64,000 bases of DNA from Chloroflexota bacterium (GTDB lineage Bacteria; Chloroflexota; Anaerolineae; Aggregatilineales; Phototrophicaceae): NCBI GenBank assembly GCA_016223085.1, contig JACRPS010000003.1, positions 248,001 through 312,000 of the forward strand. Direction: 5' to 3'. The notes under the pieces were generated by a model. The model did not search any database, was not told where the DNA came from, and saw only the letters and a list, made by a program, of their open reading frames with translations. Both the position numbers and the translations under genes were made by a program. Below are positions 31,279 to 39,821 of this stretch, in pieces (the stretch's first letter is position 1; every line of letters starts with the position of its first letter).

Positions 31279-31301
31279 GTAGGGGCACGGCATGCCCCTA
31301 C
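31279..31301. repeat. Family A intergenic palindrome (cluster copy 1)
   Basis: GTAGGGGCACGG...ATGCCCCTAC; first of three copies in the 31130-31682 gap, which otherwise holds no gene. Confidence 0.85.
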
Positions 31302-31361
31302 TGGCAAATAAAAGAGGTTTACGGATAGGTTCTAGATGAAAACCGGTAGATAGGGTTATTC

Positions 31362-31390
31362 GTAGGGGCGAACCGGCGGTTCGCCCGTAC
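31362..31390. repeat. Family A intergenic palindrome (cluster copy 2)
   Basis: GTAGGGGCGAACCGG...TTCGCCCGTAC element. Confidence 0.85.
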
Positions 31391-31454
31391 ATTCTATGAA
31401 TCGGTTGTCGGTCATCCATAAGTGTATCGTCCGGTAGTTTCTGATTTGTTGTCC

Positions 31455-31481
31455 GTAGGGGCGCAGGCTGTGCGCCCCTAC
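31455..31481. repeat. Family A intergenic palindrome (cluster copy 3)
   Basis: GTAGGGGCGCA...TGCGCCCCTAC element. Confidence 0.85.
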
Positions 31482-31682
31482 AGATACCATTTCGTTACTT
31501 CAATCAATTGCAGGACAAAGCAATAAGTACAGGCGGAAAAGTCCTTTTGCATATTGGATTGAACCATCAGCTTCACTAACTCGGCACTCACCACTCGGAG
31601 CTTCTTTAACTGCACTTAAAGTAGAACTTTCGTTCGGTTTTGTGGTATGATAAGTCGAAATTGTGATCAACAGGCAGCGGCC

Positions 31683-32036
31683 ATGAAACGGTTTCGACGG
31701 AACAAATACCGGAACACCCGAGTAACACGCGGCGAACTCACCTTCGACAGCGAGGCCGAAGCCAAGCGGTACGTCCGGTTGAAGGCTTACGAGGAAGCCG
31801 GGCACATCAGCGATTTGCAGGTGCATCCCACCTACGAACTGCTGCCCGCCTTCACCGACCGTTACGGCAAGAAGCAGCGCGCCGTCATTTACGAAGGCGA
31901 TTTCGCCTACATCCAGGACGGCGTGCAGGTGGTTGAGGATGTGAAGGGCAAGGAGACGGAAGCGTTTAAGCTGAAGCGCAAGCTGTTCCTGGCGCGCTAC
32001 CCGGAGATTGATCTCCGGGTAATCGCGGCCAAATAG
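31683..32036 (+). CDS. DUF1064 family protein (phage-type PD-(D/E)XK nuclease-like)
   Basis: 117 residues from the ATG at 31683. The family signature is NKYRNTRV, FDSEAEAKRYVRLKAYEEAG, YEGDFAYIQDGVQVVEDVKG and FKLKRKLFLARYP. The E...D...(V)EDVKGK arrangement matches a PD-(D/E)XK-type nuclease core as in DUF1064, which is common in phages and mobile elements. It stands alone, with no phage structural genes around, so it is probably a remnant of a past insertion or a domesticated gene. Nuclease activity is inferred from fold only. Confidence 0.85.
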   Translation: MKRFRRNKYRNTRVTRGELTFDSEAEAKRYVRLKAYEEAGHISDLQVHPTYELLPAFTDRYGKKQRAVIYEGDFAYIQDGVQVVEDVKGKETEAFKLKRKLFLARYPEIDLRVIAAK

Positions 32037-32075
32037 GAATGAACCGTCAGGAACACCAGGATTTTATGCTTCATT

Positions 32076-32106
32076 TCTTGGCGCACTTGGCGTCTTGGCG
32101 GTTAAC
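32076..32106. repeat. Family B CTTGGCG-type repeat
   Basis: CTTGGCGCACTTGGCGTCTTGGCGGTT array; related copies at 33410 and 34443. Confidence 0.75.
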
Positions 32107-32108
32107 CA

Positions 32109-33347
32109 TCAGTATTTCGGCAGGCGACGGTCAATCTCGTCCGCCCACGCGAGGATGCCGCCCTTGAGGTTGAGCAGCCTGTTCTTATAACCGGCCTCGC
32201 GCAGAAAACGAATCACGTCGGCGCTGCGCACGCCGGAACGGCAGTGAACGATCACCTCCTGATCGTTAGGAATCTGCGCCAGCACGGTTTCCTCGCGCAG
32301 CTTGCGCCCGGCCAGCACCGCGTTTTTGGCAGTCTGGATGTCACCCTTTGGTATCCGCAGCGTGCCATCCAGCGCTACAATCCGCCACTCGTGCGGCTCA
32401 CGCACGTCCACGATCACCGGCTGTTCGCCCGCGTCCAGCCGCGCCTTGAGTTCGCCTACTGTGATTTCGTCTACCGGCTTATCCTTCGCGCCGTTCTCGC
32501 TCCGGTATTCGCTGCGGTCGTGCGCCGGCATCCCGCAGAACTGCTCGTAATCAATCAGCGCCACCTGCTCCGCCGGGATGCCGCACACCGGGCAGTTCGG
32601 ATTTTTGCGAATCTTCAGCGTCGTGAAGCTCATTTCCAGCGCGTCGTACAGCAGCATCCGGCCAATCATCGGCTCGCCAATACCCAGAATCAGCTTGATC
32701 GCCTCGGTCGCCTGCATCGTCCCAATCGTGCCCGGCAGAATACCGAGCACCCCGCCTTCGGCGCAGCTTGGCACCAGTCCCGGCGGCGGCGGTGTGGGGA
32801 ACATGCAGCGGTAGCACGGGCCTTCTTTGGCGTAGAACACACTCAACTGGCCTTCAAAGCGGAAGATGCTGCCGTACACGTTCGGCTTGCCCAGTTTGAC
32901 GCAGGCATCGTTGACGAGATAGCGCGTCGGGAAGTTGTCCGTGCCGTCAATAATCACATCGTAGGGCGCCAGCAGTTCCACCGCGTTGGCCGAGGTCAGC
33001 GGCACGTTGTATTTGTCAATCTGCAAAAATGGGTTGATGTCCCGCATCCGCTGTCCGGCGCTGTCCACCTTGAGCGCGCCGATGCTGGACTGCCCATGAA
33101 TCACCTGCCGTTGCAGGTTGGTTTCGTCCACCACGTCGTAATCCACCAGCCCGATACGGCCAATGCCGGCGGCAGCCAGATACAGCGCCAGCGGGCTGCC
33201 CAGCCCGCCCGTGCCGATCAGCAGGACGCTGGCGGCCTTCAGCCGGCGCTGCCCGTCAATGCCCACCTCCGGCATAATCAGGTGGCGGCTGTAGCGCCGG
33301 ATTTCCTCGTGTGTTAACTCCGATAACTGCTCGACAATCGGCAACAT
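32109..33347 (-). CDS. MoeZ-like E1-type adenylyltransferase/sulfurtransferase (ThiF-rhodanese fusion)
   Basis: 412 residues. The N-terminal ThiF/MoeB domain (1-270) has RYSRHLIMPEVGIDGQRRL, the ATP-binding GTGGLGSPLALYLAAAG, DGTDNFPTRYLVND, and zinc ligands CYRC and CPVC. The C-terminal rhodanese domain (about 295-412) has the active-site loop HCRSGVRSADV with catalytic Cys. It adenylates a sulfur carrier's C-terminal Gly and transfers sulfur to make a thiocarboxylate. It shares the strand and neighbourhood with a MoaD/ThiS-like carrier, MetX, MetY and a JAMM protease, which points to carrier-dependent homocysteine synthesis. A molybdopterin role is the alternative. Confidence 0.92.
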   Translation of the reverse strand: MLPIVEQLSELTHEEIRRYSRHLIMPEVGIDGQRRLKAASVLLIGTGGLGSPLALYLAAAGIGRIGLVDYDVVDETNLQRQVIHGQSSIGALKVDSAGQRMRDINPFLQIDKYNVPLTSANAVELLAPYDVIIDGTDNFPTRYLVNDACVKLGKPNVYGSIFRFEGQLSVFYAKEGPCYRCMFPTPPPPGLVPSCAEGGVLGILPGTIGTMQATEAIKLILGIGEPMIGRMLLYDALEMSFTTLKIRKNPNCPVCGIPAEQVALIDYEQFCGMPAHDRSEYRSENGAKDKPVDEITVGELKARLDAGEQPVIVDVREPHEWRIVALDGTLRIPKGDIQTAKNAVLAGRKLREETVLAQIPNDQEVIVHCRSGVRSADVIRFLREAGYKNRLLNLKGGILAWADEIDRRLPKY

Positions 33348-33372
33348 TACATCCCTTTCTCGTGATAGGCCG

Positions 33373-33398
33373 GTAGGGGCACGGCATGCCGTACCCCC
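33373..33398. repeat. Family A intergenic palindrome
   Basis: GTAGGGGCACGGC...GCCGTACCCCC just upstream of the MoeZ-like gene. Confidence 0.8.
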
Positions 33399-33409
33399 GC
33401 ATTTTATCT

Positions 33410-33438
33410 CTTGGCGTCCTCCGCGCCTTGGCGGTTCA
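33410..33438. repeat. Family B CTTGGCG-type repeat
   Basis: CTTGGCGTCCTCCGCGCCTTGGCGGTT copy, directly after the family A palindrome and before the thioredoxin-like gene end. Confidence 0.7.
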
Positions 33439-33445
33439 CTGTATT

Positions 33446-33856
33446 CTACCTCGCCGCGACTTCGATCTGCCGTCGCAGTTTGGCTGCGTCCGCCACGCCG
33501 TGATTCACCTCCAGCGGCTGGCCGTATTTATCGAGAATGAACGTGGTCGGCGCGGAGAACACGCCCCAGCGGTCGGCGGCGTCCGGGTCTTCAACGGCGT
33601 CCACCTTCACCACCTGCACGCCTTCGCCCAGTTCGGTTTTGAGCTTCGCCAGCGCCGGCTGCTGCTGTGTCTGGCACGGGATGCAGCCGGGCGTGGTGAA
33701 ATAAACAATCGCCGGCACGCCGGGTTTCAGGTCGTTCAGAATAGGGTCGGTTGGCGCGGCGTTTGCTGCCCGGCGCAGATTCATCCGCTTGAAAATGGTG
33801 TAAGCTGCTACGCCAAACGCCAGTACAACGAGGGTGATGAAAATTCTTTCGATCAT
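33446..33856 (-). CDS. Membrane-tethered thioredoxin-like protein
   Basis: 136 residues from the ATG at 33856, preceded by AGGAAA. An N-terminal membrane anchor (FITLVVLAFGVAAYTIF) is followed by a thioredoxin fold: YFTTPGCIPCQTQQQPAL (active site CIPC), VQVVKVDAVEDPDAAD, VFSAPTTFILDKYG. Orientation of the anchor is not decided by the sequence. The gene for a DUF4395 protein follows upstream (same strand, 59 bases away); such pairs of DUF4395 and thioredoxin are commonly co-located. It may reduce a sulfur-loaded carrier or supply electrons in the nearby sulfur-transfer cluster. Confidence 0.9.
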   Translation of the reverse strand: MIERIFITLVVLAFGVAAYTIFKRMNLRRAANAAPTDPILNDLKPGVPAIVYFTTPGCIPCQTQQQPALAKLKTELGEGVQVVKVDAVEDPDAADRWGVFSAPTTFILDKYGQPLEVNHGVADAAKLRRQIEVAAR

Positions 33857-33915
33857 GATTGTTTCCTGCCTCCTTCCCCTCTCCCTCAGGGAGAGGGGTA
33901 AGGGGTGAGGGCATC

Positions 33916-34374
33916 CTACCCCTCCACCGGCGCGCGGGTGAAGCCGGGCACGCCCAGGCGGTTTAACTGGTAATACATCCAGCAGCCCAGGCAGAAGTTC
34001 AGCCAGAAGTTCAGGTTTGCCAGCGCGATCACGACCCACACCAGCACCCAGGCGGGAGTCGGCACGCCCGCCAGCAGCAGCACGGTGGCGACGCCGTTCA
34101 TCAGCCCGCCCAGCAGTTGGGCGAAGCGGTGCGGTTCGGGGTTGTCGTTGATGACGTTCGGCCTGACGACACCCAGCGGCTTTATCACCCGCTGGTACAG
34201 CAGCCGGTACGGCGCGAACGGCGCGTCAAAGGCGCTTAAAAGCTGCGCGATGGCGACCAGCACCACCAGCAGCCAGCTATTCAGCACAAAGCCCAGCAGC
34301 AGCAGGATGATCGTCGCTGCCTGCCCGACTCGAAGCCCGGTTTGATCTACTTTCCGTAACGTCTCGGTTGCCAT
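33916..34374 (-). CDS. DUF4395 membrane protein
   Basis: 152 residues from the ATG at 34374, preceded by GGGGAAATCATC; the longer in-frame start at 34509 runs through repeat sequence and is rejected. Four membrane segments are visible. DUF4395 motifs are VNDNPEPHRFAQLLGG-like (INDNPEPHRFAQ, with NDNPEPHRF) and LNFCLGCWMY with a Cys pair. Family members often neighbour thioredoxin or sulfurtransferase genes and are suspected to handle disulfide or sulfur exchange in the membrane. This neighbourhood fits, but the reaction is not known. Confidence 0.88.
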   Translation of the reverse strand: MATETLRKVDQTGLRVGQAATIILLLLGFVLNSWLLVVLVAIAQLLSAFDAPFAPYRLLYQRVIKPLGVVRPNVINDNPEPHRFAQLLGGLMNGVATVLLLAGVPTPAWVLVWVVIALANLNFWLNFCLGCWMYYQLNRLGVPGFTRAPVEG

Positions 34375-34403
34375 GATGATTTCCCCACTCATTCGTTGTT
34401 CCC

Positions 34404-34430
34404 GTAGGGACATGGCCCGCCATGTCCCTG
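34404..34430. repeat. Family A intergenic palindrome
   Basis: GTAGGGACATGGC...GCCATGTCCCT copy. Confidence 0.8.
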
Positions 34431-34442
34431 CCGTTTGATCGT

Positions 34443-34475
34443 TGATCTTGGCGTTCTTGGCGTCTTGGCGGTTCA
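34443..34475. repeat. Family B CTTGGCG-type repeat that interrupts a GNAT gene
   Basis: CTTGGCGTTCTTGGCGTCTTGGCGGTT. It overlaps the end of the truncated acetyltransferase at 34473. Confidence 0.75.
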
Positions 34476-34808
34476 AAAAATCTGCCGTCCAATACCCTGC
34501 CCCTGACACTCCGGCAGCAGGTAGATTGCGTACAGTTCGGCGTCGTAATCAGACTGCTCGTCGCGCCCCGGCCCGCCAACCGTGAAGCCAACAGGCTGTC
34601 CGTTCTCGTCCTCCGCCACCAGCAGCACCGACTGTCGCTCCGGGTTGGTCAGATTGCCGCGCCACATCGCCTCGCGGCCTTCGTAAGTCAGACCATCCAG
34701 AAACGCCTGCGGCACGATCCCGGCATAAGTCGAGCGCCAGCTATCCACGTGAACGCGGGCAATCGCGGGCGCGTCGTCCGGCACAGCCACGCGAACAGTC
34801 GTCACCAC
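34473..34808 (-). pseudogene. GNAT-family acetyltransferase, 3'-truncated
   Basis: 111 residues, start GTG overlapping the stop of the sulfur-carrier gene (GTGGTGA). The N-terminal two thirds of a GNAT fold are intact: VRVAVPDDAPAIARVHVDSW, VLLVAEDENGQPVGFTVGG, YAIYLLPECQGQGIGRQIF. The frame then ends exactly where a family B repeat begins, so the last ~50 residues (final strand and helix) are missing. This looks like truncation by repeat insertion or deletion. It could still fold poorly; function is unlikely. Confidence 0.7.
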
Positions 34809-35077
34809 GAACCTCCCGCAATGCTCGGAATAATCCGCAGATTCGCGTCGGCTTCGATCTCCGTGTTCAGCCCGTCGAGGAAGCGTACGTCCTCATCGTC
34901 CAGAAACACGTTGACGAAGTTCCGCAGCTCGCCGCCGTTAAACAGGTGCGGGCGCAGTTCAGGGTAGCGCGCTGTCAGGTCTTCCAGCGCCGCGCCGACT
35001 GTCACGCCATTGACGTTCACCTGCGGCTGGCTGCCGGTATACACCCGCAGCGGGGTGGGAATTTTGATCGTTGCCAC
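34802..35077 (-). CDS. MoaD/ThiS-family sulfur carrier protein with C-terminal extension (GG-SW)
   Basis: 91 residues, GTG start at 35077 with AAGGAGAG upstream. Ubiquitin-like fold: VGAALEDLTARYPELRPHLF, LRNFVNVFLDDEDVRFLDGL, DANLRIIPSIAGG. Mature carriers end in Gly-Gly; here two more residues (Ser-Trp) follow. They would have to be cut to expose the Gly for adenylation by the MoeZ-like enzyme. A JAMM protease gene (38122-38550) lies in the same region, as in protein-thiocarboxylate-dependent cysteine/homocysteine pathways. It belongs to the CysO/HcyS type by context; ThiS or MoaD roles are less likely because no thi or moa genes are near. Confidence 0.82.
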   Translation of the reverse strand: MATIKIPTPLRVYTGSQPQVNVNGVTVGAALEDLTARYPELRPHLFNGGELRNFVNVFLDDEDVRFLDGLNTEIEADANLRIIPSIAGGSW

Positions 35078-35110
35078 TTACTTACTCTCCTTGCGTTACG
35101 CCGGTTGTCC

Positions 35111-35138
35111 GTAGGGACACGATATATCGTGTCCCTAC
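35111..35138. repeat. Family A palindrome that supplies the metX stop codon
   Basis: A perfect 28-bp palindrome GTAGGGACACGATA/TATCGTGTCCCTAC. On the minus strand, the metX stop TAG (35137-35135) lies inside it. An identical copy is at 36367-36394 on the other side of metX. Confidence 0.9.
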
Positions 35139-36328
35139 AGCGTCTTTTGTTTTTCCCACAGTCTATCCAGAAAGCCGCCGACGATGTGGGTCATCGTCTC
35201 CACTTCGACCAGAAACGAGTCGTGGCCGAACGTCGCTTCGATATGCACATGTTCGACCGCTTTACCCGCGTCCTGCAGCGCGTTGACCAGTTCCAGCGCC
35301 TGTTCTTTCGTGTACAGCCAGTCGCTGGAAATGCTGACGACCAGGAACGGGCACTGCGTCCGCGCGACGGCAGCGTGAATCGAGCCGTAGCCGTCGGCCA
35401 CGTCGTAGTAATCCAATGCTTTGGTGATGTACAGGTAGCTGTTGGCGTCGAAGCGTTCGACGAACTTCTGCCCCTGGTGCTGCAAATAGCTCTCGACCGC
35501 GAAATCAGTATCGAAGCCGTAAACCAGCCCGTTGCCGCTTTGTGTCCGGCGGCCAAACTTCTGCTCCAGCGAAGTTTCGCTCATGTAGGTGATGTGCCCA
35601 ACCATCCGCGCCACCGCCAGCCCTTTTTCCGGGCGCGGGCCGTGATAGTAATCCCCGCCGTTCCAGTTTGGGTCGGCGTAGATCGCCTGCCGCCCGATCT
35701 CATTAAAGGCGATATTCTGCGTGGACGAGCGCGGCGTGCTGGCGATAAACAGCACCGAGCCAACCCGTTCCGGATAATCCACCGCCCACTGGAGCGCCTG
35801 CATCCCGCCCATGCTGCCGCCCCCAACCGCAAACAGTTTCTCGATGCCCAGGAAGTCGAGCAGATGCCGCTGTGCCGCCACCATATCCTGCACCGTCACA
35901 AACGGGAAGCGCAGGCCGTAGGGTTTGCCGTCCGGCGCCAGCGACGACGGCCCGGTGCTGCCCTGGCAGCCGCCGATGACGTTGGCGCAAATTACAAAAA
36001 AGCGGTTTGTGTCGAACATCTTGCCCGGCCCAACCGCGTCATCCCACCACCCCGGCTTTTCCTCCGGGTCATCGGTGTAATACCCCGCCACGTGCGAGTC
36101 GCCGGACAGGGCATGGCAGATGAGGATGGCGTTGGAACGGTCCGCGTTCAGGCGGCCATAGGTTTCATAGGCCAGCGTGAAGCGCTCCAGCATTTCGCCG
36201 CTGCGCAGCGCCAGCGGCCTGTCGAAGTGAACGTACTGCCGCCGCACGATGCCCACCGAGTCAGGCTGGTAAGCGCGGCGAGGGGTACAGTCGGTTTTGG
36301 TCATAGGGTTAATCGGTATCGCAACCAT
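35135..36328 (-). CDS. metX: Homoserine O-acetyltransferase (MetX)
   Basis: 397 residues from the ATG at 36328, preceded by AGGAGA. MetX acylates homoserine with an acyl-CoA as the first step to methionine. The alpha/beta-hydrolase fold has the nucleophile motif GGGSMGGMQALQWA (Ser around residue 160), an Asp region (SSDWLYTKEQALE), and the His in GHDSFLVEVETM. NVIGGCQGSTGPSS is characteristic of this family. The start at 36355 is possible but has a poorer site. Acyl donor (acetyl versus succinyl) cannot be read off without specific residue analysis. It pairs with the MetY gene upstream, and both sit next to a sulfur carrier gene. Confidence 0.93.
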   Translation of the reverse strand: MVAIPINPMTKTDCTPRRAYQPDSVGIVRRQYVHFDRPLALRSGEMLERFTLAYETYGRLNADRSNAILICHALSGDSHVAGYYTDDPEEKPGWWDDAVGPGKMFDTNRFFVICANVIGGCQGSTGPSSLAPDGKPYGLRFPFVTVQDMVAAQRHLLDFLGIEKLFAVGGGSMGGMQALQWAVDYPERVGSVLFIASTPRSSTQNIAFNEIGRQAIYADPNWNGGDYYHGPRPEKGLAVARMVGHITYMSETSLEQKFGRRTQSGNGLVYGFDTDFAVESYLQHQGQKFVERFDANSYLYITKALDYYDVADGYGSIHAAVARTQCPFLVVSISSDWLYTKEQALELVNALQDAGKAVEHVHIEATFGHDSFLVEVETMTHIVGGFLDRLWEKQKTL

Positions 36329-36366
36329 GCTGCTTCGTTCTCCTGTTGACCTCACCTTTTATTGAT

Positions 36367-36394
36367 GTAGGGACACGATATATCGTGTCCCTAC
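36367..36394. repeat. Family A palindrome, identical to 35111-35138
   Basis: Perfect 28-bp palindrome between metX and metY, identical to the copy downstream of metX. Confidence 0.9.
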
Positions 36395-36413
36395 AGGTGA
36401 GGACAGCGCCAGC

Positions 36414-37781
<1,368 letters not shown>

Positions 37782-37862
37782 TTAATTCGGTTAGGTGGTG
37801 TAGGAAACGCGCGGTTACAGCCTGTGATATACCCGTTGCCGGAAGTCCTCAGCGGCCAGCAT

Positions 37863-37944
37863 CCTGTAGTCTGTAGTCTTCAGTCTATAGTCTTCAGTCT
37901 GTAGCTTCTTGACTGATGACTGGCGACTGACGACTGATGACTTC
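37863..37944. repeat. Family C GACTG/CAGTC repeat array
   Basis: Degenerate tandem units such as CTGTAGTCTTCAGTC and GACTGATGACTGGCGACTGACGACTG. A related array is at 62268-62341. Confidence 0.75.
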
Positions 37945-38049
37945 TCGCATGTTGAACGCTGACGGCTAACATCGTCGGTGTCACCGCGCCCGGTGTCTGC
38001 TGCTGGTTATATTCGATAGCGTTTCTCCTGTGTTTATCCTGACAGTGCT

Positions 38050-38121
38050 GCTAAAAGGCTTTTGGCTTTTAGCGATTAGCATTTGGCTTCTGGCAAAATG
38101 CTAACGGCTAACAGCCAACCG
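38050..38121. repeat. Family D AGCCAAAAGC/GCTAATCGC repeat array
   Basis: Short units built on GGCTTTTGGCTTTTAGCGATTAGC and GCTAACGGCTAACAGCCAAC, just downstream of the JAMM gene. Confidence 0.7.
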
Positions 38122-38550
38122 CTAATCCCCAACCGCCAGTTCCTCCGCCTCAAACGCCGTCCGGTCGGGCCGCAGCCGCCACGCCCGCATCTCCCCTGCT
38201 CTGGCCTCCTGCACCTCCGTGATCAGATACACAAAGTGCGGTAGTGCATGGTCGCGGTCGTACACCGACGGCACAGCCGGCGAATCCGGGTGGCTGTGGT
38301 AATAACCCACCAGCGCCAGCCCGCGCGCGTCGGCTTCGTCTTCCAGCCGCGCCCAGTCCTGCGGCGTCATGGCATAGCGGTGGTACTGTTCCTCGGCGGC
38401 GAACACGTTCTGTATCTGAATCGTCTCGGTAATCCGCACGTCCCCGTTATGCAGCGTCCCCAGCAGGAAGCCGCCGCCCTCGTTCGGGTAGGTCGCCTCC
38501 AGATGGCGGAAAATAGTCTCTTGCAGCGAACGATGCAGATTCACAGCCAT
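38122..38550 (-). CDS. JAMM/Mov34 metallopeptidase (Mec+/HcyD-like)
   Basis: 142 residues from the ATG at 38550, preceded by GGAGCG; longer in-frame starts are rejected. The JAMM zinc site is complete: E24 in YPNEGGGFLLG, H85 and H87 in YYHSHPDSPAVPS, D98 in YDRDH, plus S95. This layout is that of Mec+ from Mycobacterium, which frees cysteine from CysO, and of HcyD, which trims a sulfur carrier. Linked to a MoaD/ThiS-like protein with residues after GG, it probably processes that carrier or its amino-acid adduct. Other JAMM substrates cannot be excluded. Confidence 0.88.
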   Translation of the reverse strand: MAVNLHRSLQETIFRHLEATYPNEGGGFLLGTLHNGDVRITETIQIQNVFAAEEQYHRYAMTPQDWARLEDEADARGLALVGYYHSHPDSPAVPSVYDRDHALPHFVYLITEVQEARAGEMRAWRLRPDRTAFEAEELAVGD

Positions 38551-38565
38551 GTTTGTTTTCGCTCC

Positions 38566-38590
38566 GTAGGGGACGGCATGCCGTGCCCCT
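38566..38590. repeat. Family A intergenic palindrome
   Basis: GTAGGGGACGGC...GCCGTGCCCCT copy upstream of the JAMM gene. Confidence 0.8.
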
Positions 38591-38891
38591 GCCACTTCGT
38601 CCAACACAAACAAAAAGCGCCAGCCCAGTTCGGGGTGGCGCTTGCCTTCTGCCTCGCTGCGGCTGGTCTTCAGCCGCGTGTCCGCCCGCCCTGGGAATCG
38701 AAACAGCCCTGCATACACATGCACATCATACAGGGCATGGCCTCAGGATTCAGGGTGGGGAAACGGTTCACGTCGTTCATAATCGCAAAGCCTAACATGC
38801 TTTTTACCAGAATGCAAGAGTCCGAAATGAGAATTTGAAAAATGGTTTTACCGCGCATGGAACTTCCAAACGGGCACGTCCGTATAAAGAC

Positions 38892-38919
38892 GTAGGGACA
38901 CGGCATGCCGTGTCCCTAC
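38892..38919. repeat. Family A intergenic palindrome, perfect copy
   Basis: Perfect 28-bp palindrome with arms GTAGGGACACGGCA and TGCCGTGTCCCTAC, upstream of the rhomboid gene. Confidence 0.9.
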
Positions 38920-38955
38920 AGTACCATCTGTGACAAGCGGGAAAGGACTGTTTCC

Positions 38956-39648
38956 ATGATTCCGGTTAAAACGCTCCAGCCGGTTCGCAGCAAGGCTTAT
39001 GTCACCTACGGCCTGATCGCGCTCAACGGCCTGATTTTCCTGTGGCAGCTTACGTTGTCCCAGCCCCAGCTTAAGGACACCTATTATGCTCTGGCTGCCG
39101 TCCCCTGCGAAATTTCGCGCAACCTGCTGTCGGTGGAAACGCTGCTGGACATCTTCCGCAGCATGTTTTTACACGGCAGTTGGGCGCACCTGGTTGCGAA
39201 TATGACTTTCCTGTGGATCTTTGGCCGCAACGTGGAAGACTATTTCGGCCACCGCAGGTTTTTCCTGCTGTACGTCGCCACCGGCTTCCTCGCCGCGCTG
39301 ACCGAGGTGGTCATCAACACCGGCCTGTGCGTGCCACTGGTGGGCGCCAGCGGCGCGATTGCCGGCGTGCTCGGCGCCTATCTGATTCTCTACCCCGGTT
39401 CGCGGGTGAAGATCATGGTGATCTTCTTCCGCTTTTTCCCGCGCTTTTACAACATCCCGGCGCTGGTGGTGCTTGGGCTGTGGTTTGTCATCCAGTTGTT
39501 TAACGGCATCGCCTCGCTGGGCGTAACCACCCTCGGCGGCGGGGTCGCGTTTTTCGCGCATATCGGCGGCTTTATCGCCGGGCTGGTCGCCACGTTTTTC
39601 TACCTGATGTTTAACCCCCCGCCCGACCGCACCGTGTATACGGATTAG
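38956..39648 (+). CDS. Rhomboid-family intramembrane serine protease
   Basis: 230 residues from the ATG at 38956, preceded by GAAAGGA. Six to seven membrane segments. The catalytic dyad is Ser132 in GASGAIAG (130-137) and His202 in AHIGGFIAG. The HGSWAHLVANMTFLWIFG segment (residues 73-90) supplies the conserved His and Asn of the oxyanion site. It cleaves membrane-spanning substrates within the bilayer; its substrate here is unknown. No accessory domain is fused. It is divergent from the JAMM gene. Confidence 0.93.
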   Translation: MIPVKTLQPVRSKAYVTYGLIALNGLIFLWQLTLSQPQLKDTYYALAAVPCEISRNLLSVETLLDIFRSMFLHGSWAHLVANMTFLWIFGRNVEDYFGHRRFFLLYVATGFLAALTEVVINTGLCVPLVGASGAIAGVLGAYLILYPGSRVKIMVIFFRFFPRFYNIPALVVLGLWFVIQLFNGIASLGVTTLGGGVAFFAHIGGFIAGLVATFFYLMFNPPPDRTVYTD

Positions 39649-39668
39649 TTCTCAATGCTGAACCCACC

Positions 39669-39696
39669 GTTGGGACACGACAGGTCGTGTCCCAAC
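39669..39696. repeat. Family A element, GTTGGGACA variant
   Basis: GTTGGGACACGAC...GTCGTGTCCCAAC just after the rhomboid gene. Confidence 0.8.
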
Positions 39697-39821
39697 ATTC
39701 GGGATTTTATCAACAAACGTAAATTCCCCGCCAGATCGCTTCGGTAATACTGGCAGAACTCCGCTGTCTTCTATACCATAAGACGACTGTACTGACTGCC
39801 CCATCATAAAAAGGCAAGACC

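What the first reader, a model, noticed from the sequence alone, without database searches (positions are those of the whole stretch)
34802..35077. Sulfur carrier made as a pro-form ending in GG-Ser-Trp
The MoaD/ThiS-like protein has two residues after the terminal Gly-Gly. Such an end cannot be adenylated until trimmed. A JAMM protease gene is 3 kb away in the same block, predicting a maturation step that exposes Gly-Gly.
Basis: partly seen in the sequence, partly recalled or inferred. Interest (0 to 1): 0.6.

Follow-up and report, generated by a model that had tools for sequence, protein, structure and literature searches.

The report
Capped sulfur carrier with trimming protease
A small bacterial sulfur-carrying protein is made with two spare residues over its working end and sits beside the gene for the protease expected to trim it; the arrangement is real and evolutionarily coherent, but it is a new example of a known way of making sulfur amino acids.

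Summary
The ORF at 35077-34802 (minus strand) is a ThiS/MoaD-family carrier ending IIPSIAGG-SW. A JAMM gene lies 3.0 kb upstream in the same run of genes, with O-acetylhomoserine sulfhydrylase, MetX, DUF4395, thioredoxin and a MoeB-rhodanese E1. The likeliest reading is protein-thiocarboxylate homocysteine synthesis, in which the JAMM removes Ser-Trp and later releases homocysteine. This is a known kind (HcyS/HcyD, QbsE/QbsD, PtmS2/PtmS1).

In 20 Chloroflexota relatives the cap is present in 15, with ten different sequences of 1-13 residues, while the JAMM active-site residues are invariant. Tail-less orthologues keep a JAMM, so caps go with JAMMs but a JAMM does not imply a cap. Among 71 unfused ThiS-family matches in Anaerolineae, short caps occur in 23 of 51 from JAMM-bearing genomes and 3 of 20 from the rest (weak, p 0.03). 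MoaD-MoaE fusions, which also bury Gly-Gly, lie in JAMM-bearing genomes in 109 of 114 cases, against 119 of 151 with separate genes.

The cap looks like drift tolerated because a JAMM exposes Gly-Gly, not a conserved signal. Trimming itself is not shown here. New member of a known kind.

The parts
34802..35077 (-). ThiS/MoaD-family sulfur carrier, 91 aa, ending Gly-Gly-Ser-Trp
   Evidence: best solved relative 3dwg_C, annotated 9.5 kDa culture filtrate antigen cfp10A (recalled to be M. tuberculosis CysO), E 1.2e-17
34802..34810 (-). cap codons TCG (Ser), TGG (Trp) and TGA stop
34811..34816 (-). Gly-Gly codons GGAGGT, which also read as a Shine-Dalgarno sequence 5 nt before a GTG at 34805
   Evidence: not a family trait: GGAGG in 3 of 20 Chloroflexota loci
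38122..38550 (-). JAMM (Prok-JAB) metalloprotease, 142 aa
36414..37769 (-). O-acetylhomoserine sulfhydrylase (MetY/Met17)
   Evidence: TIGR01326 674 bits, cut-off 495
35135..36355 (-). MetX, homoserine O-acetyltransferase
   Evidence: NF001209 540 bits, cut-off 331
34473..34808 (-). GNAT acetyltransferase ORF overlapping the carrier's end, cut short inside the domain
   Evidence: PF00583 match stops at profile position 79 of 116; sequence
33916..34374 (-). DUF4395 protein with an invariant Cys-x-Gly-Cys
   Evidence: PF14340 5.7e-31
33446..33856 (-). Thioredoxin-like protein with invariant CxxC
   Evidence: PF00085
32109..33347 (-). MoeB-type E1 with C-terminal rhodanese domain (predicted persulfide Cys369)
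   Evidence: PF00899 and PF00581

Best explanation
The block encodes homocysteine synthesis that uses a protein thiocarboxylate. The carrier is translated with Ser-Trp after Gly-Gly. The JAMM protease cuts after the second Gly. The MoeB-rhodanese protein adenylates the exposed Gly and replaces AMP with sulfur from its rhodanese persulfide. O-acetylhomoserine sulfhydrylase couples the thiocarboxylate to O-acetylhomoserine, which MetX makes. The JAMM then hydrolyses the carrier-homocysteine adduct, giving homocysteine and a carrier ready for another round. Because this second job forces the JAMM to be present anyway, the carrier's C-terminus is free to drift, so caps come and go. Shown here: gene content, the cap, conservation of the active sites, variability of the cap, co-occurrence. 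Inferred: every chemical step and the pairing of this JAMM with this carrier.
For: Families of the nine ORFs scanned. Nearest solved carrier is 3dwg_C, recalled to be CysO of the CysO/CysM/Mec cysteine pathway. Among 20 Chloroflexota loci the JAMM is in the locus in 18 and elsewhere in the genome in the other 2; DUF4395 in 17, E1 in 16, Met17 at 76% identity or more in 9. Cap present in 15 of 20, ten distinct sequences. Within 5 kb of JAMM genes in Anaerolineae 20 of 28 distinct carriers are capped or run on into a longer protein (the 37-residue tail of L119 is the cut-off start of an E1 fusion, L148). Carrier-E1-rhodanese and carrier-rhodanese-E1 fusions beside a JAMM. Published precedent: capped PtmS2 (MV) and PtmS3 (C), and the statement that carriers with capped C-termini typically require a protease, as exemplified by QbsD (passages of PMC6006322); DRJAMM cleaves MoaD-MoaE (passages of PMC8832034).
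Against: No cleavage was observed. 5 of 20 Chloroflexota relatives have no cap but do have a JAMM, so the JAMM's presence is not specific evidence for trimming. Only 27 of 80 fetched JAMM neighbourhoods (about 7 kb either side where the contig allows) hold a ThiS-like frame, so many JAMM genes have other or unlinked targets. The short-cap test is weak (23 of 51 against 3 of 20, p 0.027; by genome 18 of 38 against 2 of 16, p 0.029; not corrected for kinship). Three one-residue caps lie in two genomes without a detected JAMM (G112, 87% complete; G017, 92%). Five fused MoaD-MoaE genomes lack a strong JAMM (G116, G082, G051, G112, G400). Met17 is on the fetched DNA in only 9 of 20 loci, for some because the contig ends but not for all, so the methionine role may not hold for every relative. 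The genome has a second JAMM.
Confidence: 0.78

Rival explanations
1. The JAMM serves only to release the amino acid from the carrier adduct (as Mec does); the two extra residues are nibbled off by housekeeping peptidases.
For: A JAMM is kept by relatives without a cap; nine tail-less carriers with no JAMM in their locus, eight named Acidimicrobiia/Actinobacteria and one Isosphaeraceae, have one elsewhere in the genome.
Against: Caps and MoaD-MoaE fusions are concentrated in JAMM-bearing genomes (fusions 109 of 114, separate genes 119 of 151); QbsD and DRJAMM are reported to do the trimming in other systems.
Confidence: 0.12
2. The cap has no role: it is stop-codon drift at an overlap with the next gene, whose start (GTGA) and Shine-Dalgarno (GGAGGT) fall on the carrier's last codons. 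This concerns the cap's origin and is compatible with the best explanation.
For: Overlap and spacing; caps vary in length and sequence among close relatives; L007, 86% identical, has an 11-residue tail running into its own GNAT match.
Against: It does not say how Gly-Gly is exposed; caps also occur where no gene overlaps, for example the shared R cap in L018-L022 followed by a spacer. GGAGG is found in only 3 of 20.
Confidence: 0.5
3. The carrier is a ubiquitin-like protein modifier (SAMP-like) and the JAMM a deconjugase.
For: NCBIfam SAMP1 and desampylase are the best-scoring models.
Against: Both score below their cut-offs (56.9 against 60; 71.4 against 130 bits); none of the nine ORFs scanned matched an E2-type family and several are sulfur-metabolism enzymes.
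Confidence: 0.07
4. The carrier is dead: a stop-codon loss has blocked Gly-Gly for good.
For: The neighbouring GNAT ORF is truncated.
Against: The carrier core is intact and 15 of 20 Chloroflexota relatives are capped too; the E1, JAMM and Met17 frames are intact.
Confidence: 0.03

Closest known systems
[quoted passage not shown] paper not held; the pathway's existence seen as cited in PMC5764234 and PMC6225789; gene names and steps recalled)
   Same: Carrier, JAMM, E1 and O-acetylhomoserine sulfhydrylase together; carrier made with extra C-terminal residue(s)
   Different: Cap is Ser-Trp here, Ala there (recalled); E1 carries a rhodanese domain here; MetX, DUF4395 and thioredoxin in the block; no sulfate-reduction gene among the nine ORFs scanned
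QbsE/QbsD of thioquinolobactin synthesis and PtmS2/PtmS1 of Streptomyces platensis (PMC6006322, passages)
   Same: Residues after Gly-Gly (two in PtmS2) and a JAMM gene clustered with the carrier gene
   Different: Product is a thiocarboxylic acid natural product, not an amino acid
CysO/CysM/Mec cysteine pathway (PMC3227635, passages)
   Same: Closest solved carrier (3dwg_C); a protease (Mec) releases the amino acid; rhodanese-E1 (MoeZR) activates the carrier
   Different: Chain 3dwg_C ends at Gly-Gly; partner is a cysteine synthase, here O-acetylhomoserine sulfhydrylase
Operon classes 4b-4e of Iyer, Burroughs and Aravind 2006 (PMC1779556, passages)
   Same: ThiS/MoaD-like protein, JAB peptidase, E1 with rhodanese; class 4c lists a Chloroflexus, class 4e has O-acetylhomoserine sulfhydrylase
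   Different: Here E1-rhodanese and O-acetylhomoserine sulfhydrylase occur together; in 4e the E1 lacks rhodanese
DRJAMM cleavage of the MoaD-MoaE fusion in Deinococcus (PMC8832034, passages)
   Same: JAMM exposing a buried carrier glycine
   Different: The mask is a whole MoaE domain

Membership tests
ThiS/MoaD sulfur carriers (PF02597) | beta-grasp family match ending in Gly-Gly | tested here: met
   E 2.6e-11, residues 4-89; GG at 88-89, then SW
JAMM/Prok-JAB metalloproteases (PF14464) | Glu plus HxHx7SxxD metal and active-site residues | tested here: met
Capped carriers matured by a JAMM (QbsE/QbsD type) | residues after Gly-Gly and a linked JAMM gene | tested here: met
Capped carriers matured by a JAMM (QbsE/QbsD type) | JAMM removes the residues to expose Gly-Gly | not testable with these tools
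   needs purified proteins and mass spectrometry
Protein-thiocarboxylate methionine pathway (HcyS type) | carrier, JAMM, E1 and O-acetylhomoserine sulfhydrylase in one cluster | tested here: met
Protein-thiocarboxylate methionine pathway (HcyS type) | sequence orthology of the carrier and JAMM to HcyS and HcyD | not tested
   no W. succinogenes sequence was fetched
Protein-thiocarboxylate methionine pathway (HcyS type) | carrier-homocysteine adduct formed by the sulfhydrylase and cut by the JAMM | not testable with these tools
   biochemistry
SAMP1 modifiers (NF041918) | score over the curated cut-off of 60 bits | tested here: not met
   56.9 bits
Haloarchaeal desampylase (NF041370) | score over the curated cut-off of 130 bits | tested here: not met
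   71.4 bits

The most novel reading that the evidence does not exclude
A JAMM protease works as a genome-wide licence for buried Gly-Gly ends. Once a cell has one, for releasing cysteine or homocysteine from a carrier, all its sulfur carriers may drift into capped forms or fuse to their partners (MoaE, E1, rhodanese), so that molybdenum-cofactor and methionine synthesis come to depend on the same kind of trimming step. In this genome both the capped carrier and a MoaD-MoaE fusion would need it.
Probability: 0.42. Interest if true: 0.45.

Novelty: new member of a known kind. Interest (0 to 1): 0.3.

Why it matters
It places a rarely annotated methionine route in Chloroflexota with a testable order of steps, and turns scattered case reports of capped carriers and MoaD-MoaE fusions into a comparative rule of thumb: a buried Gly-Gly predicts a JAMM. 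That helps annotate JAMM genes of unknown target and warns that annotated carriers may be inactive unless co-expressed with their JAMM. The conserved DUF4395-thioredoxin pair in the same block is an unexplained lead.

Tried and rejected
Shine-Dalgarno idea: that the cap exists because the Gly-Gly codons serve as ribosome-binding site of the next gene. GGAGG occurs at the terminal Gly-Gly in 3 of 20 Chloroflexota loci, so this is local, not general.

Cap and JAMM implying each other: rejected. Nine tail-less carriers with no JAMM in their locus have one elsewhere in the genome, and 5 of 20 Chloroflexota relatives lack the cap but have a JAMM.

The first JAMM motif scan required Pro after HxH and missed the HSHTATEAYPSRTD form of Streptomyces; repeated without it.

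Fusion counts were first made (105 of 108 fused, 122 of 154 separate) and mended after re-reading the tables: G061, G210 and G262 have both domains in one open frame and were moved to fused; the contig-edge fusions G051 and G112 (no strong JAMM, against my reading) and G309 (JAMM) had been left out and were added. Still dropped: full-length matches with a stop inside where junction and end cannot be told apart, 7 in Actinomycetota and 14 in Chloroflexota outside Anaerolineae (all 21 genomes have a JAMM), and the partial match G385. Counting those 21 as separate, and weak JAMM matches as JAMMs, gives 110 of 114 against 146 of 172, stratified p 2e-5, but then Chloroflexota outside Anaerolineae alone is not significant (p 0.16). 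Actinomycetota alone is never informative (p 0.58). In Anaerolineae two stop-containing rows (G039, G007) were kept as fused because their DNA was read; nine others (G026, G081, G084, G067, G059, G114, G055, G025, G080) were counted as separate, six of them confirmed tail-less on the DNA and three (G055, G025, G080) not read at that place.

The tail table uses 110 of about 150 listed rows (more matches exist unlisted); rows beside a JAMM and some 30 others, many with long frames, were not fetched, so the fusion count rests, not. The 80 loci are the best 80 of 512 confirmed and are rich in Streptomyces.

Paper searches that gave nothing useful. No search listing (titles and starts of abstracts) showed a published count of caps or fusions against JAMM presence; the library holds only openly licensed papers, so this is weak evidence of absence.

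Full report
What is there. The ORF at 35077-34802 on the minus strand starts with GTG 7 nt after a GGAGAG ribosome-binding site, encodes 91 residues and ends IIPSIAGG-SW-stop. It belongs to the ThiS family (PF02597, E 2.6e-11, match ending at the second Gly); its closest solved relative is chain 3dwg_C (E 1.2e-17), which I recall to be CysO of M. tuberculosis. The block, in order of transcription, is JAMM (38550-38122), O-acetylhomoserine sulfhydrylase (37769-36414), MetX (36355-35135), carrier, a truncated GNAT ORF, DUF4395, thioredoxin and a MoeB-type E1 with a rhodanese domain (33347-32109). All are on one strand. The JAMM's Glu, both His, Ser and Asp are invariant over 19 sequences, and the E1's rhodanese Cys369 over 17.

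Is the cap special? In the 20 Chloroflexota loci among the best 80 relatives, 15 carriers run past Gly-Gly, with ten distinct sequences: R (six times), C, VR, AA, AG, AQG, SAA, TLE, KRDDGSAGRTG and RAGCESAPSLRQE. Ser-Trp is the window's own. The nearest relative, 86% identical, has eleven extra residues. The cap therefore varies far faster than the core, as expected of residues that are removed. In the other 60 loci, 47 of 48 with a JAMM motif in the locus are capped, and 3 of 12 without; most of the first group are Streptomyces (caps MR, MA, MV and longer ones) and the second is rich in Acidimicrobiia, so this contrast is confounded by kinship. Of those 12, 11 have a JAMM elsewhere in the genome; the exception is a 1.6 Mb MAG, L070, with a one-residue cap.

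In 120 Anaerolineae genomes, 79 have a strong JAMM (E up to 1e-13, counted). I read the DNA at 110 ThiS-family matches (of about 150 listed rows; rows next to a JAMM were left out). The three exceptions are one-residue caps in two genomes (G112, 87% complete; G017, 92%). This is suggestive only. Of 80 JAMM neighbourhoods fetched in the same class, 27 hold a ThiS-like frame. With the shorter stretches, 28 distinct carriers lie within 5 kb of a JAMM: 8 exposed, 20 capped or running on into a longer protein. Among these are fusions of the carrier to the E1 itself: carrier-E1-rhodanese (L146) and carrier-rhodanese-E1 (L178). The exposed ones include five of a separate type ending ASAAGG or ASISGG.

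A stronger form of the same test. MoaD fused to MoaE also buries Gly-Gly. With a fusion profile (A1), one-frame fusions were found in 57 Anaerolineae genomes, 53 with a strong JAMM; 27 genomes have separate genes, 14 with a JAMM (p 3e-5; by family majority 19 of 20 against 6 of 13, p 0.003). In other Chloroflexota, 39 of 40 fused against 52 of 66 separate (p 0.008). In Actinomycetota, 17 of 17 against 53 of 58, not informative. Together 109 of 114 against 119 of 151, stratified p 1e-6. With the loosest choices (weak JAMM matches counted as JAMMs, unclear rows counted as separate) it is 110 of 114 against 146 of 172, p 2e-5, but other Chloroflexota alone is then p 0.16. The five fused genomes without a strong JAMM are G116 (a JAMM-like fragment, E 2e-4), G082 (weak match, 3e-7), G051 and G112 (none found) and G400 (none; another member of its genus has one); all five are assemblies of 240 to 1110 contigs. 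These counts treat genomes as independent, which they are not. They concern MoaD, not this carrier, and support only the general rule. The window's own genome holds such a fusion (L001), two carriers ending at Gly-Gly (L002, L003), and a second JAMM with a hydrophobic C-terminal stretch (L217).

How it works. The best-supported explanation is protein-thiocarboxylate homocysteine synthesis: JAMM trims Ser-Trp, E1-rhodanese makes the thiocarboxylate, the sulfhydrylase adds it to O-acetylhomoserine from MetX, and the JAMM frees homocysteine. The need for a protease on capped carriers is stated in PMC6006322 (passages read), where PtmS2 has MV and PtmS3 has C after Gly-Gly and QbsD is the precedent. 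Mec's role is in PMC3227635 (passages). DRJAMM's cleavage of MoaD-MoaE is in PMC8832034 (passages). Cleavage of MoaX at Gly82, by a protease then unidentified, is in PMC4326299 (passages). The methionine pathway of Wolinella is cited in PMC5764234 and PMC6225789 (passages); its steps and HcyS-Ala are recalled, as the paper is not held. JAB-ThiS-E1 operons, including a Chloroflexus one, were described in PMC1779556 (passages).

What the cap is for. Probably nothing. Relatives without it keep a JAMM, and the cap changes freely. In the window the Gly-Gly codons read GGAGGT and the stop overlaps a GTG of the next ORF, so the last codons may be shaped by the neighbour, but GGAGG is found in only 3 of 20 loci. 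If the JAMM must be present to release homocysteine, the end of the carrier is free to drift.

Novelty. New member of a known kind. The new parts are the breadth of cap variation, the asymmetry (caps go with JAMMs, not the reverse), and the fusion-JAMM counts. No published count of this was seen in the listings, which cover only openly licensed papers.

Noticed in passing
34374-33446: DUF4395 with an invariant Cys-x-Gly-Cys and a thioredoxin with an invariant CxxC sit in this block and in 17 and 14 of 20 Chloroflexota carrier loci; they have no place in the known pathway as I recall it and may form a membrane-linked redox or persulfide relay. Two papers in the library mention DUF4395, each once; neither was read.
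   Followed up: partly
34808-34473: GNAT ORF stops inside its domain where a repeat (aaccgccaagacgccaag...) begins; relatives such as L008 have room for a full-length gene.
   Followed up: partly
31279-39698: Eight copies of a 25-nt palindromic repeat, GTAGGGACACG...CGTGTCCC, lie mostly between genes; a second repeat has three copies at 32076, 33409 and 34446.
   Followed up: no
L001 (G000:C22:143999-144229 and downstream): MoaD-MoaE fusion in the window's own genome, PF02597 plus PF02391.
   Followed up: yes
L146:7544-9007 and L178:4834-6348: Carrier fused to its own activating enzyme, in two domain orders (carrier-E1-rhodanese and carrier-rhodanese-E1), each next to a JAMM gene.
   Followed up: partly
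L217:6968-7522: Second JAMM of the genome, with a hydrophobic C-terminal stretch, beside a prepilin-peptidase-like gene and an mnmA-like gene (names from reading the translations).
   Followed up: no
38905-39648: A rhomboid protease gene stands divergently next to the JAMM; a rhomboid match is on the same fetched stretch in three relatives (L008, L012, L016), in L016 several kb from the JAMM. A rhomboid gene near mec-cysO-cysM in mycobacteria is recalled, not checked.
   Followed up: no
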